Source of the DNA: Metridium senile
Lineage: Eukaryota; Cnidaria; Anthozoa; Actiniaria; Metridiidae
DNA length: 64,000 bases
Reading direction: 5' to 3'
NCBI GenBank assembly: GCA_949775045.1
Contig: CATKSA010000071.1
Coordinates: 1 to 64,000, forward strand
Part shown: piece after piece, positions 16,877 to 61,908 of the stretch
How the letters are laid out: each line of letters opens with the position of its first letter
How positions within the stretch are numbered: position 1 is the stretch's first letter
Made by a program: the position numbers and the translations under genes
Notes under the pieces: generated by a model
What the model saw: the letters and a program-made list of their open reading frames with translations, nothing else
What the model was told of the DNA's origin: nothing
Databases searched by the model: none

Positions 16877-16986
16877 GCCAGGCGGTGTTTTTTTTGTCCT
16901 ACTCAAACATACATCACTAGCTTGCAATTAGAACTGCTTGCAGTGGAAGTGTTCAGCTTGGATTTTAACTTGTCTTTTGCTTGCAG
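16877..16986 (+). repeat. Diverged satellite-monomer edge, left end of unit 1
   Basis: After GTGTGGGCCA the satellite sequence is interrupted by about 50 bases absent from all monomers. Homology then resumes (TTAGAACTGCTTGCAGTGG) with substitutions and indels. It ends in a T-rich splice-acceptor-like tract closing in TTGCTTGCAG. The last 26 bases match the acceptor region at 34574-34599 on the right edge of the unit. This looks like an ancestral form from which the array monomer was derived by deletion. Confidence 0.75.
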
Positions 16987-17295
16987 CTAATTCCCCGACC
17001 AAGGATTTGAAGATCAGGCCCTTTTATATTTGGACGTGATAGAAAATGATATATAAGGCCTGAAGTCAGTGTTGTGGTTGTTATAATATTTTGTTAGTGT
17101 TTTGCACACAAGATTGCCAGCGAGAATGGAAACTTTTAGGACGACTTCCTGAATGGATTTGTGTGTGTAAGTGTGTAAATAAGTAAGTGAGTCAAGTTTT
17201 GAAAACAAAAAAAGTCTAAAATACCAAGAAAAAACTAATCCAAGTAATGTGTAGCAATTTAGTCAAAGGTTAAATAAATATTTTGTGAGATGATT
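16987..17295 (+). other. Candidate terminal exon of the array transcript, unit 1
   Basis: A strong acceptor (CTTTTGCTTGCAG) ends at 16986. The sequence that follows has stop codons in the frames reached from the upstream mini-exons. It holds a canonical AATAAA at 17273-17278 followed by GT-rich sequence, as expected for a 3' terminal exon and cleavage site near 17290-17300. The 71 aa ORF overlapping the acceptor is a shadow. The exon would be spliced to mini-exons in array A to its left. Inferred from splice and polyadenylation signals only. Confidence 0.5.
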
Positions 17296-17299
17296 TACG

Positions 17300-17977
17300 C
17301 GTGTTTTCTTTTTAATAGCTTTTTTAAACCCTTAAAAAAAACACCCACTCTTTTTCTTTTGTCTTAAATTCCGTCTCCCTTTCTACCAACTCTCTTTTTT
17401 TTGTTTCAATTCCTTTTTTCTTTCAACTAACTTGTCTTCACTTTTGTCTTCAATTTTTTCTCCCTTCTTTCAACTTTCCTTCGTTACTTTTAAGTTTGTT
17501 TTTCCTTTCAAAAAAACTGTTCTCGTAAGTAAAAGGTATTTGTAAAAGGTCCTTTTGCAGAGAATCAGTTTTCATGATAGTTCTCTCGCCAACAACTAGT
17601 TTATCAAACACTATACATACATGCTTTTTCAGAATAATGCACTACAATAATAATCAGAAAGGGTTTTTTTCTCATTTGTTTTTGTCCCTTTATATTTGCA
17701 AAAGAGATTTTTGATTTTTGATCCACATTTTGGGATTGACACCCTGATTATCTTGCAAGTATATAAACTTGCAGATATATTGCGATATACTTTGTTTATA
17801 ATTGTAAATTGTTAATGTAATACTTAATTGTAATCACCGCTGACGTCCGTGCCTGGATTAGTTTCACTATTATGGCAACATTAAACTGAAACTGAAAACA
17901 ATCTCAATGGAGTTGCACATATTTGTTTTAACATTCTTAGGCAAATTTTAAGTAACCCCAAATTCAGGGTTCACTCC
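17300..17977. other. AT-rich spacer with pyrimidine-rich tract
   Basis: No gene is seen. From about 17310 to 17520 the plus strand is dominated by CTTTT/TTTC runs. The remainder is AT-rich spacer without long ORFs or clear repeats. Confidence 0.6.
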
Positions 17978-18028
17978 TAACCCTAAACCCAAACCCTAAA
18001 CCCTAAACCCTAAACCCTAACCCTAACC
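17978..18028. repeat. Interstitial telomere-type tract
   Basis: A run of CCCTAA and CCCTAAA units (TTAGGG/TTTAGGG on the other strand) of about 50 bp. The number and type of units differ in the matching tract of unit 2. The final CCCTAACC is also the start of the following 220 bp repeat. It is too short to be a telomere and its origin is unclear. Confidence 0.8.
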
Positions 18029-18465
18029 ATAAAAGCGTTTGTGCTATCCTGTATAATCCCAAAAACGATTAACCCAAGGGTTGAAGCAAAAGCGTTTTTA
18101 ACCGAAAAATCCCAAAACGTTTAGCAGATATGCCGATATCTCTTTAAACGTTTTTCGACTAGATGGCTATCAGTTTTGCAAACGAAACCAGCTTTTACGG
18201 ATAAACGTTTCATATTTATCAACTGATCATTTCTTTTTAACCCTAACCATAAAAGCGTTTGTGCTATCCTGTATAATCCCAAAAACGATTAACCCATGCA
18301 AGGGTTGAAGCAAAAGCGTTTTTAACCGAAAAATCCCAAAACGTTTAGCAGATATGCCGATATCTCTTTAAACGTTTTTCGACTAGATGGCTATCAGTTT
18401 TGCAAACGAAACCAGCTTTTACGGATAAACGTTTCATATTTATCAACTGATCATTTCTTTTTAAC
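18021..18465. repeat. Two tandem 220 bp repeats rich in CGTTT/AAACG boxes
   Basis: Copies at 18021-18240 and 18241-18465 are almost identical; the second has a TGC insertion at CCCATGCAAGGG. Each copy holds about seven AAACG or CGTTT boxes, two in the fuller form AAACGTTT or AACGTTT. The same box recurs next to the iterons by the recombinase gene (23588-23611). It may be a binding-site cluster, or the boxes may simply share origin. Function is unknown. Confidence 0.75.
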
Positions 18466-18687
18466 CTTTCAGTCACTAGCTGTCTTCTTTTTTTTTCTTC
18501 TTCTTCTCATTTTAAATATACACCCAATTGCAAGAACGTTGTCCTGTCTTTTGTGATTTAGTAGGATAGGAATTAATTAAAAGACAAAACAAGATCACTC
18601 AAGCTGAACTCTTGCTTTTGTTATTCCTTTGTTACTAAATTACTAATGTTCTTTTTTCATGTGACAATTAGGTGTATATACACGTAG
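18466..18687. other. AT-rich spacer
   Basis: T-rich tract followed by unremarkable AT-rich sequence. Nothing recognisable. Confidence 0.5.
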
Positions 18688-18955
18688 CTATTTCAAAAAA
18701 AGTTGTCATCGCCAAAAGCGATAGGCGATAGGTTATTCCAAGACCCAAGTACACTATAGGTATAATCTAAAGTATCCACAGAAAAGCAGAAAAGCTGTCA
18801 GTACGTGTCTTCTAGGCACATTTTCAGTCCTTCGACAAGACATATAACTCTCCAGCGGAGATCGTTGTTTAGTGGAGTTGGCATGATTGAAAATTTCACG
18901 ACTTAGGATTATACCCATAGTGCATTTTTGGCGATGACAACCTTTTTTGAAATAG
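18688..18955. mobile_element. MITE-like element with 30 bp terminal inverted repeats
   Basis: The left end at 18688-18717 (starting CTATTTCAAAAAAAG and ending CATCGCCAAAA) is the reverse complement of the right end at 18926-18955 with a single mismatch. The element is 268 bp and has no coding capacity. The 101 aa minus-strand ORF across it is a shadow. A TA dinucleotide sits just inside both ends and could be a target duplication of a mariner-like family, but this is not certain. Confidence 0.8.
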
Positions 18956-59800: not shown

Positions 59801-60292
59801 TTTCAGTTGAAACGTGAACATATAATAGACACGCCTTTAGTTTATTGTCAGAGTATAGAGCGGATTTCGTATGACTGCGCAAACAGCACGGACACAGCAC
59901 GGTACAGTACAAATGAATTTAGAGAGTTTTTCTTGTGCCTATCAAAACACCACAGTTTGGTTACGGCAGTGATTTCGAATGTCTTTATAGAAACTACGGC
60001 ACGAAAACGGCACGGCACGGTCATGGCAAAAACTTCGAATCTTTTTATATAAATTACGACACGGTCACGGCACGGTACGGTACGTTGCACAGTCATACGA
60101 AATCCGCATATAAAACACGGAGCTGTTCTTTACACCGTTAAAAACTCTCCATTGAGAGTTATTCATTCAATTTAGACTTTTAAATTTAGCTTTTCATTCA
60201 TGATGTTATGATAAAGGATTGGATGCGTTATCATTTCAACTTACCTCAACCAAAAATGGACAATCTTTACTCGACGAATTCACAAACTCCAT
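56880..60292 (-). CDS. GNAT-like and SNase-like fusion, second copy
   Basis: Predicted exons are 60292-60245, 58935-58237 and 58157-56880. Splice sites, phases and translated ORFs are the same as in the copy at 29727-33142, including R514, D519, E522, D572 and R576 of the nuclease domain and N168 and Y175 of the acetyltransferase domain. Intron 1 is about 3 bp shorter, mostly because of the C-run. No disabling change is visible. Confidence 0.75.
58999..59106. repeat. (ATCA)n then (CATC)n microsatellite, unit 2
   Basis: Same tract as 31846-31944 with a slightly different unit number, inside intron 1. Confidence 0.95.
59378..59418. repeat. Poly-C and CA tract, unit 2
   Basis: Shorter C-run than at 32217-32268. 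Confidence 0.9.
59860..60107. mobile_element. MITE-like element with 22 bp inverted ends, unit 2
   Basis: Same element as 32710-32957, in intron 1 of the GNAT-nuclease gene. Confidence 0.75.
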
Positions 60293-60489
60293 GTCGGATT
60301 CTATCTGAAAGTAAAGCGTTAGTACAAAAAGAAATGATTCAATAGATTGTGTGTTGTCCTCGTTCGGATTCTATCTGAAAGTGAAAGCGTTAGTACTGAA
60401 ATGAAATGATTCAATAAGCTTGTTTTTTTTCCTCGTTTTTCACTCTCATCTGCGTAGTCAACTACCTAGATTATTGTAGAGCTATTGTT

Positions 60490-61141
60490 CTGCAATTACC
60501 CAGAATTCCAAGATGAAATTATACCATAATTCCATTCGGGAACCCTGTGTAAAACAAGTAGTCTGTAATTACCCACAATTCCAAGATGAAATTATACCAT
60601 AATTCCATTAGGGAACCCTGTGTAAAACAAGTAGTCTGTAATTACCCACAATTCCAAGATGAAATTATACCATAATTCCATTAGGGAACCCTGTGTAAAA
60701 CAAGTAGTCTGTAATTACCCACAATTCCAAGATGAAATTATACCATAATTCCATTAGGGAACCCTGTGTAAAACAAGTAGTCTGTAATTACCCACAATTC
60801 CAAGATGAAATTATACCATAATTCCATTCGGGAACCCTGTGTAAAACAAGTAGTCTGTAATTACCCACAATTCCAAGATGAAATTATACCATAATTCCAT
60901 TAGGGAACCCTGTGTAAAACAAGTAGTCTGTAATTACCCACAATTCCAAGATGAAATTATACCATAATTCCATTAGGGAACCCTGTGTAAAACAAGTAGT
61001 CTGTAATTACCCACAATTCCAAGATGAAATTATACCATAATTCCATTAGGGAACCCTGTGTAAAACAAGTAGTCTGTAATTACCCACAATTCCAAGATGA
61101 AATTATACCATAATTCCATTCGGGAACCCTGTGTAAAACAA
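60490..61141. repeat. Nine tandem 73 bp repeats, unit 2
   Basis: Same array as 33340-33990. The TTCGGG variant also occurs in an internal copy near 60828, whereas in unit 1 it is seen only in the first and last copies, so the arrays have exchanged or converted independently. Confidence 0.9.
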
Positions 61142-61316
61142 TAACACGTTGGGTTCAGTGTGTTTGATCGTACCGTCACGGTTTCTTTGCAAAAATTTTT
61201 TAACAGCAAATATGTGACCTGATACTTTATCGTCCTTTATCATTGGAAGTTATTAATATCAATGTGAATTGTATAGTTAGTAAGCTGGAAATACTAAATA
61301 TATCGATGTTCGTGGA

Positions 61317-61347
61317 ATGCCAAGATGGCGGACATGCTTGAATTCAG
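61317..61347 (+). other. Candidate first exon of the array transcript, unit 2
   Basis: Same as 34166-34196, with donor CAG|GTAAGC at 61348. The transcript would continue through array C beyond the window. Confidence 0.45.
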
Positions 61348-61750
61348 GTAAGCATTTAGATTCCAAGTCTATTTAGTATGTATTTTGTATAAATACGGTT
61401 AGTTTGTTAAAGTATATACTCGAAGGTATCTCTCTGTACACACACGTTGTGTAACTTGTAAAAGTGTTTCATTAACTTGATCTACAAGAATTGTCAATAA
61501 ACGGAATGCCAATTCCTATTTTATATAATGTGTTCTAGTGTAATGGAATTACGTTAGAAAATATTTTATGTTCTAATATATAATATAATATATATTAGTT
61601 GAACGTGATGATGTCCAACACTAGTTAATTCACATAATGAGAATCTTACAGTATGATCAATTTTGAACTGCATGTTTGTTTATACATATATTCGACAACT
61701 AGCTGGTTCAAAGTGGCCAACTCTGATTTTAACTTGTCTTTTGCTTGCAG

Positions 61751-61812
61751 CGTCAATGGGTTTGGCCAGTCGCATGCCGTATAAATGGCACGTGTTTAAG
61801 CATATACGGCAG
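61751..61812 (+). other. 62 bp edge mini-exon, unit 2
   Basis: Same exon and splice sites as 34600-34661. Confidence 0.55.
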
Positions 61813-61908
61813 GTAAGGATCACTGTGATTAATGGATATTATACTGTAGACAGCTAGTTCTGTTTAGTAATAATTATGATATAGTGCAGTCTGTATTTTT
61901 GTTTTGGC

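What the first reader, a model, noticed from the sequence alone, without database searches (positions are those of the whole stretch)
16877..61908. A 27 kb macrosatellite that carries its own recombinase, an acetyltransferase-nuclease fusion and an exonised satellite
The window shows array, gene unit, array, gene unit, array, all in the same orientation. Each unit keeps an intact tyrosine recombinase and a second intact multi-domain gene. The candidate array transcript is complete only when units are tandem or circular, because its start lies at the right edge of one unit and its end at the left edge of the next. Tyrosine recombinases act on circles, so a circular intermediate integrating next to a resident copy would give this head-to-tail arrangement. 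I do not recognise this combination as a named element.
Basis: partly seen in the sequence, partly recalled or inferred. Interest (0 to 1): 0.9.

Follow-up and report, generated by a model that had tools for sequence, protein, structure and literature searches.

The report
Gene-bearing satellite with its own recombinase
In an unnamed eukaryote, near-identical 27 kb blocks, each carrying a predicted DNA recombinase gene, a predicted nuclease gene and a long run of short repeats, sit head to tail; the structure is real, but that the recombinase makes the blocks move or multiply is not shown.

Summary
The structure is real. Three arrays of a 414-bp satellite (40.7, 23.7 and 5.1 copies; the outer two cut by the window) alternate with two gene units in the same orientation (17.9 and 17.3 kb; period 27.2-27.7 kb). 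The units differ by 9 substitutions and 10 indels, none in 4,471 predicted coding bases. Each encodes, on the minus strand, (1) a tyrosine recombinase with two alternative in-frame first coding exons and (2) a two-exon protein whose second exon is a staphylococcal-nuclease fold with the seven catalytic positions invariant in 12 of 12 sequences. Its first exon is only probably an acetyltransferase. Both genes have relatives elsewhere (2, 11 and 7 non-window clusters). The proposed array transcript has plausible splice sites but stops in every frame, so at most it is non-coding. The argument for circles fails, because where a tandem repeat 'begins' is arbitrary. No element ends or attachment-like site were found, and recombinase and nuclease were not shown together elsewhere. 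Best reading: a recently amplified or homogenised gene-bearing macrosatellite built on a gene pair of probable mobile-element origin; recombinase-driven mobility is possible but untested. The own-genome search did not complete (14 tries).

The parts
1..16876 (+). 414/415-bp satellite array 1 (40.7 copies; left end cut by the window)
16877..34757 (.). gene unit 1 (17,881 bp)
16987..17316 (+). putative terminal exon of the array transcript after acceptor GCTTGCAG, with AATAAA at 17273 (end approximate); equivalent acceptor in unit 2, exon start 44698
   Evidence: sequence; no transcript evidence
21018..23235 (-). tyrosine recombinase, main coding exon, unit 1
23667..23797 (-). alternative first coding exon 1b of the recombinase (in frame with main exon)
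24167..24312 (-). alternative first coding exon 1a of the recombinase (in frame with main exon)
29727..31002 (-). second gene, last exon: SNase-fold nuclease
31083..31782 (-). second gene, preceding exon: probable GNAT acetyltransferase domain; further upstream exon(s) not located
33339..33990 (+). 73-bp tandem repeat (8.9 copies), upstream of the putative array-transcript first exon
34174..34196 (+). putative first exon of the array transcript, from its ATG (AAGATGGCGGAC...) to donor CAG|GTAAGC
34600..34661 (+). 62-nt diverged edge copy of the satellite exon, acceptor and donor kept
34758..44587 (+). 414-bp satellite array 2 (23.7 copies, complete)
44588..61908 (.). gene unit 2 (17,321 bp)
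48731..50948 (-). tyrosine recombinase main exon, unit 2, identical DNA to unit 1
51380..51510 (-). alternative first coding exon 1b, unit 2, identical DNA to unit 1
51880..52025 (-). alternative first coding exon 1a, unit 2, identical DNA to unit 1
56880..58155 (-). second gene, SNase exon, unit 2, identical DNA to unit 1
58236..58935 (-). second gene, probable GNAT exon, unit 2, identical DNA to unit 1
60489..61141 (+). 73-bp tandem repeat, unit 2
61325..61347 (+). putative array-transcript first exon, unit 2
61751..61812 (+). 62-nt edge copy of the satellite exon, unit 2, identical to unit 1
61909..64000 (+). 414-bp satellite array 3 (5.1 copies; right end cut by the window)

Best explanation
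A nested tandem repeat: a gene-bearing macrosatellite of about 27.2-27.7 kb in a eukaryote. Each unit holds a tyrosine recombinase gene and a (probable GNAT)-SNase nuclease gene, both intact, and inside it one 414-bp segment (shaped like an exon with its flanking introns) is itself amplified about 24 to over 40 times. Shown: the repeat structure, near-identity of units and monomers, intact genes with relatives elsewhere, the SNase fold and its catalytic positions, the recombinase's core-binding fold and catalytic residues. Inferred: the pair comes from a tyrosine-recombinase mobile element (two DNA-acting enzymes with relatives elsewhere and no named host family). The tandem copies were made recently or are kept alike by unequal exchange and gene conversion, as in other macrosatellites, rather than by repeated recombinase-driven insertion. 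The array may be transcribed as a spliced non-coding RNA; this is a guess from splice signals.
Against: Zero changes in 4,471 predicted coding bases against 9 in 13,410 others is also what a very recent burst of element copies would give. Ordinary amplification does not by itself explain why the amplified unit carries two DNA-acting enzymes. Copies outside this window were not examined, so 'tandem only' is not shown. For the recombinase, the model is poor as a whole and the Foldseek list (50 of 330 rows shown) names no tyrosine recombinase; the fold support comes from the second aligner alone, and the tool warns that helical bundles can reach such Z by chance.
Confidence: 0.5

Rival explanations
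1. An active tyrosine-recombinase element (Crypton-like in action): the unit excises as a circle and integrates next to or into resident copies or satellite, giving head-to-tail arrays; GNAT-SNase and the array RNA are accessory parts.
For: Intact recombinase with the catalytic residues other than the first box-II histidine (Asn in 3 of 3), identical in both units; near-identical units. Precedent for recombinase elements lying in tandem repeats, possibly as concatemers or episomes: endogenous majaniviruses in telomere repeats (PMC10871703, section 6 read).
Against: No recombinase-type core site (11-13-bp arms, 4-9-bp spacer) in the monomer, though shuffles give only 0.1-0.3 on average; none with 12-bp arms in 16877-18500 or 33901-34757; no shared direct repeat of 8-14 bp in 100 bp around the two unit edges. 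Edges are diverged satellite, not clean termini. Recombinase and nuclease not seen on one contig elsewhere. The phase argument for circles is invalid.
Confidence: 0.2
2. A host locus: two host or long-domesticated genes amplified for dosage, like rDNA or histone clusters, with a repeated promoter (73-bp repeats) and a satellite-like non-coding gene; no mobility now.
For: Purifying selection is suggested by catalytic positions kept across 36-57% identity relatives; the intron position between the two exons of gene 2 looks conserved (Gln-Val at the donor in 6 of 7 non-window GNAT relatives); 73-bp repeats lie about 180 bp upstream of the putative first exon.
Against: No host family model matches either gene at a convincing score. 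The hits are few and unnamed, unlike a widespread host gene; but the searches scored only the candidates sharing most words.
Confidence: 0.22
3. The head-to-tail arrangement is partly an assembly artefact (one unit misjoined or repeated by collapsed or expanded satellite).
For: Monomers and units are nearly identical, the hardest case for assembly.
Against: The two units differ by a 540-bp indel, 9 substitutions and several other indels, and arrays differ in length and variant content, so they are not copies of one assembled stretch.
Confidence: 0.05

Closest known systems
Crypton elements (CryptonA/CryptonI of animals)
   Same: Eukaryotic DNA element type defined by a tyrosine recombinase gene; animal Cryptons also lack detectable terminal repeats (PMC3212892, section 8 read; passages).
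   Different: Animal Cryptons have no C-terminal domain; here an SH3/Tudor-like C-terminal part is suggested (low confidence). No nuclease-acetyltransferase partner in the passages read. No Crypton-type domain was listed by Pfam.
Endogenous nimaviruses in telomere repeats (majaniviruses and relatives)
   Same: Tyrosine-recombinase elements lying in tandem repeats; some reads run from one end of an element through the repeat to the other end, read by the authors as concatemers or episomes (PMC10871703, section 6 read).
   Different: Those are 278-401 kb virus genomes in (TAACC)n; here a 17-18 kb unit in which I recognise only two protein genes, with a 414-bp satellite.
Gene-bearing macrosatellites and rDNA-like clusters (recalled, no call)
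   Same: Large units in tandem, homogenised, with genes inside.
   Different: Those known to me do not carry a tyrosine recombinase plus a nuclease fusion; recalled, not searched exhaustively.
Starships (fungal giant elements with a tyrosine recombinase)
   Same: Large DNA units classified by a tyrosine recombinase (start of abstract seen).
   Different: Cargo-carrying elements of a fungal subphylum, up to about 700 kb; the paper itself was not read.
Staphylococcal nuclease / SND1 nuclease fold
   Same: Fold and the seven catalytic positions of the second gene's last exon.
   Different: Sequence below Pfam and NCBIfam detection, with a helical N-terminal extension and a probable GNAT exon upstream.

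Membership tests
Tyrosine recombinase superfamily | Catalytic R, K, (H/N)xxR, H/W, Y set | tested here: met
   R464, K503, N577xxR580, H609, Y618 in 3 of 3 sequences; the first box-II His is Asn in all three. Motif positions assigned by me from recalled motifs.
Tyrosine recombinase superfamily | SAM-like core-binding domain fold | tested here: met
Tyrosine recombinase superfamily | Match to an integrase profile | tested here: met
   Relative P0002 to phrog_1 integrase, E 6.5e-6, residues 384-665; 1 of 3 members. The window protein itself only weakly: XerS 0.0078, XerC 0.03, Phage_int_SAM_5 0.018.
Crypton | Crypton-type recombinase by sequence (e.g. DUF3504/GCR1_C) | tested here: inconclusive
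   No such Pfam family listed for any of 3 members at E up to 1; no Crypton sequences were on hand for a tree.
Crypton | Dispersed copies with short direct repeats or characteristic ends | not testable with these tools
   Own-genome search unanswered in 14 tries; unit edges show no direct repeat.
SNase (thermonuclease) fold family | OB-fold nuclease with D19/D21, R35, D40, T41, E43, R87 | tested here: met
GNAT acetyltransferase | Acetyl-CoA binding motif A and motif B in order | tested here: inconclusive
   rimI matches 2 of 9 members, best E 0.027, window 0.031; Pfam lists no acetyltransferase for any of 9; hhalign against three E. coli GNATs aligns motif A and B collinearly, 35% identity over 57 columns, P 0.0083 but probability 4.8%; control pairing with the SNase profile gives 22 columns, P 0.48.
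Gene-bearing macrosatellite | Kilobase-scale units in tandem, same orientation, near-identical | tested here: met
   Two units, three arrays.

The most novel reading that the evidence does not exclude
A self-amplifying macrosatellite: a new class of tyrosine-recombinase element that lives as a long tandem array. Its recombinase (with a histone-reader-like tail) makes and re-inserts circles of the 27 kb unit and of the 414-bp repeat, while its acetyltransferase-nuclease protein and array RNA help it copy or keep its chromatin open. That would make a satellite that encodes the enzyme which amplifies and homogenises it.
Probability: 0.12. Interest if true: 0.88.

Novelty: new variant of a known kind. 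Interest (0 to 1): 0.55.

Why it matters
How satellites expand and stay alike is usually put down to host recombination. A satellite that carries an intact recombinase in every unit would let that be tested directly: is the enzyme used, and on which DNA? Separately, a conserved pairing of a probable acetyltransferase exon with an SNase nuclease exon, with relatives in several unnamed assemblies and matched by no family model here, is an undescribed protein family as far as these searches go.

Tried and rejected
Circle argument from the array transcript: rejected, because the start of a tandem unit is arbitrary. Coding satellite exon: rejected, stops in all frames. Satellite as insertion target with clean element ends: not supported. 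Recombinase site in the monomer: 0 found, shuffles give 0.1-0.3 on average, so absence says little; one 14-bp palindrome AGACCTGCAGGTCT exists in the consensus monomer.

Relatives of the nuclease and recombinase alignments by pattern scan in viral contigs and in prokaryote genomes: patterns matched 21, 27, 30 and 99 stretches, none confirmed. Recombinase in phage records by tblastn: none. Rfam at gathering scores: none. ARAGORN tRNA: none. PDB by sequence: best E 0.23 to 0.93 or nothing. Foldseek on the recombinase model put Tudor domains (SGF29, TDRD3) first, E 0.08 and up, for a part with pLDDT under 50: kept only as a hint; no tyrosine recombinase is among the 50 rows shown of 330.

Protein searches were capped: 7985 and 7994 candidates scored (those sharing most words), 116; so family sizes are lower bounds.

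Papers: nine searches. Those for recombinase with satellite, macrosatellite, staphylococcal nuclease or Tudor domain listed no paper that described such an element by title or start of abstract (no paper; 10 of 53 listed); '414 bp' satellite gave one unrelated paper; the Crypton search (10 of 32 listed) found the two papers read in part. So 'not in print' holds only for these searches of open-licence papers. Papers seen: PMC3212892 passages and section 8; PMC10871703 passages and section 6; PMC6431247 passages; others listing and start of abstract only.

Only the longest contig per cluster is reported, so this is weak negative evidence.
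Full report
WHAT IS THERE. Tandem Repeats Finder gives three arrays of a 414/415-bp repeat at 1-16876 (40.7 copies), 34758-44587 (23.7) and 61909-64000 (5.1). Between them lie two units, 16877-34757 and 44588-61908, in the same orientation. The distance from unit start to unit start is 27,711 bp and from unit end to unit end 27,151 bp. A global alignment of the two units shows 9 substitutions and 10 indels, the largest 540 bp missing from unit 2; none falls in 4,471 predicted coding bases, and all five coding exons are identical between units. 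With 9 changes in 13,410 other bases, about 3 would be expected in the coding part, so their absence is not significant by itself. An earlier local BLAST showed more mismatch and gap columns because of internal duplications; the global alignment is the better count.

THE SATELLITE. Of 66 anchored monomers, 32 and 20 are identical to two types that differ by one T in a run of T, 4 are identical to a third type (one more substitution), and 10 are single. T-run differences may be sequencing error. The array edges are not clean: both unit edges hold diverged copies of the monomer in register with the array. The left edge keeps 59 bases of it after a 47-base stretch, and the right edge keeps about 190 bases. 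So the array looks like an expansion of a piece that belongs to the unit.

THE PROPOSED ARRAY TRANSCRIPT. On the plus strand one can draw: ATG at 34174 in AAGATGGCGGAC with donor CAG|GTAAGC; a 62-nt exon at 34600-34661; a 65-nt exon per monomer (TTTCAG|CGTCAA...TTGCAG|GTAATG); and a terminal exon from 16987 or 44698 with AATAAA at 17273. The edge copy keeps both splice sites although the exon between them has gained and lost bases. But 65 is not a multiple of three, and each frame of the concatenated exon has a stop every 195 nt; the longest open stretch in the drawn transcript is 81 codons. So if it is made it is non-coding. There is no RNA evidence here. That follows only from cutting the tandem at the array edges; cut elsewhere, one repeat holds the whole transcript.

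HOW IT WORKS, MOST LIKELY. A macrosatellite whose units were copied recently or are kept alike by unequal exchange and gene conversion; length changes of internal repeats between units fit this. The two genes look like DNA-acting enzymes, fit no named host family, and are intact with relatives elsewhere, so a mobile-element origin is my inference. Whether the recombinase still moves or amplifies the unit is open. I found no recombinase-type site and no direct repeat at the edges in the stretches scanned, and no contig elsewhere with both genes.

LIMITS. The own-genome search did not complete (14 tries). So there is no dN/dS, no synteny and no copy number.

VERDICT. New variant of a known kind, interest 0.55.

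Noticed in passing
window 19265-19360 (minus strand): A tRNA-like stretch with box A-like TGGTATAGTGGT and box B-like GGTTCTATTCC, followed by A-rich sequence: looks like a tRNA-derived SINE (motifs recalled; sequence); ARAGORN does not call it a tRNA.
   Followed up: partly
window 18018-18466 and 45728-46176: A 224-bp unit repeated twice, next to short telomere-like AACCCTA tracts at 17979-18026 and 45690-45736.
   Followed up: no
window 28972-29172 against 29608-29810: An 80%-identical copy of the 3' end of gene 2 and its flank lies just downstream of gene 2, a decayed partial duplication.
   Followed up: no
window 19843-20906: Two copies (94%) of a roughly 490-bp block just downstream of the recombinase gene.
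   Followed up: no
window 33339-33990 and 60489-61141: 73-bp repeats (8.9 copies) end about 180 bp upstream of the putative first exon of the array transcript, reminiscent of repeated enhancers in rDNA spacers (recalled comparison).
   Followed up: no
satellite monomer, e.g. window 34806-34819: A perfect 14-bp palindrome AGACCTGCAGGTCT in the consensus monomer.
   Followed up: no
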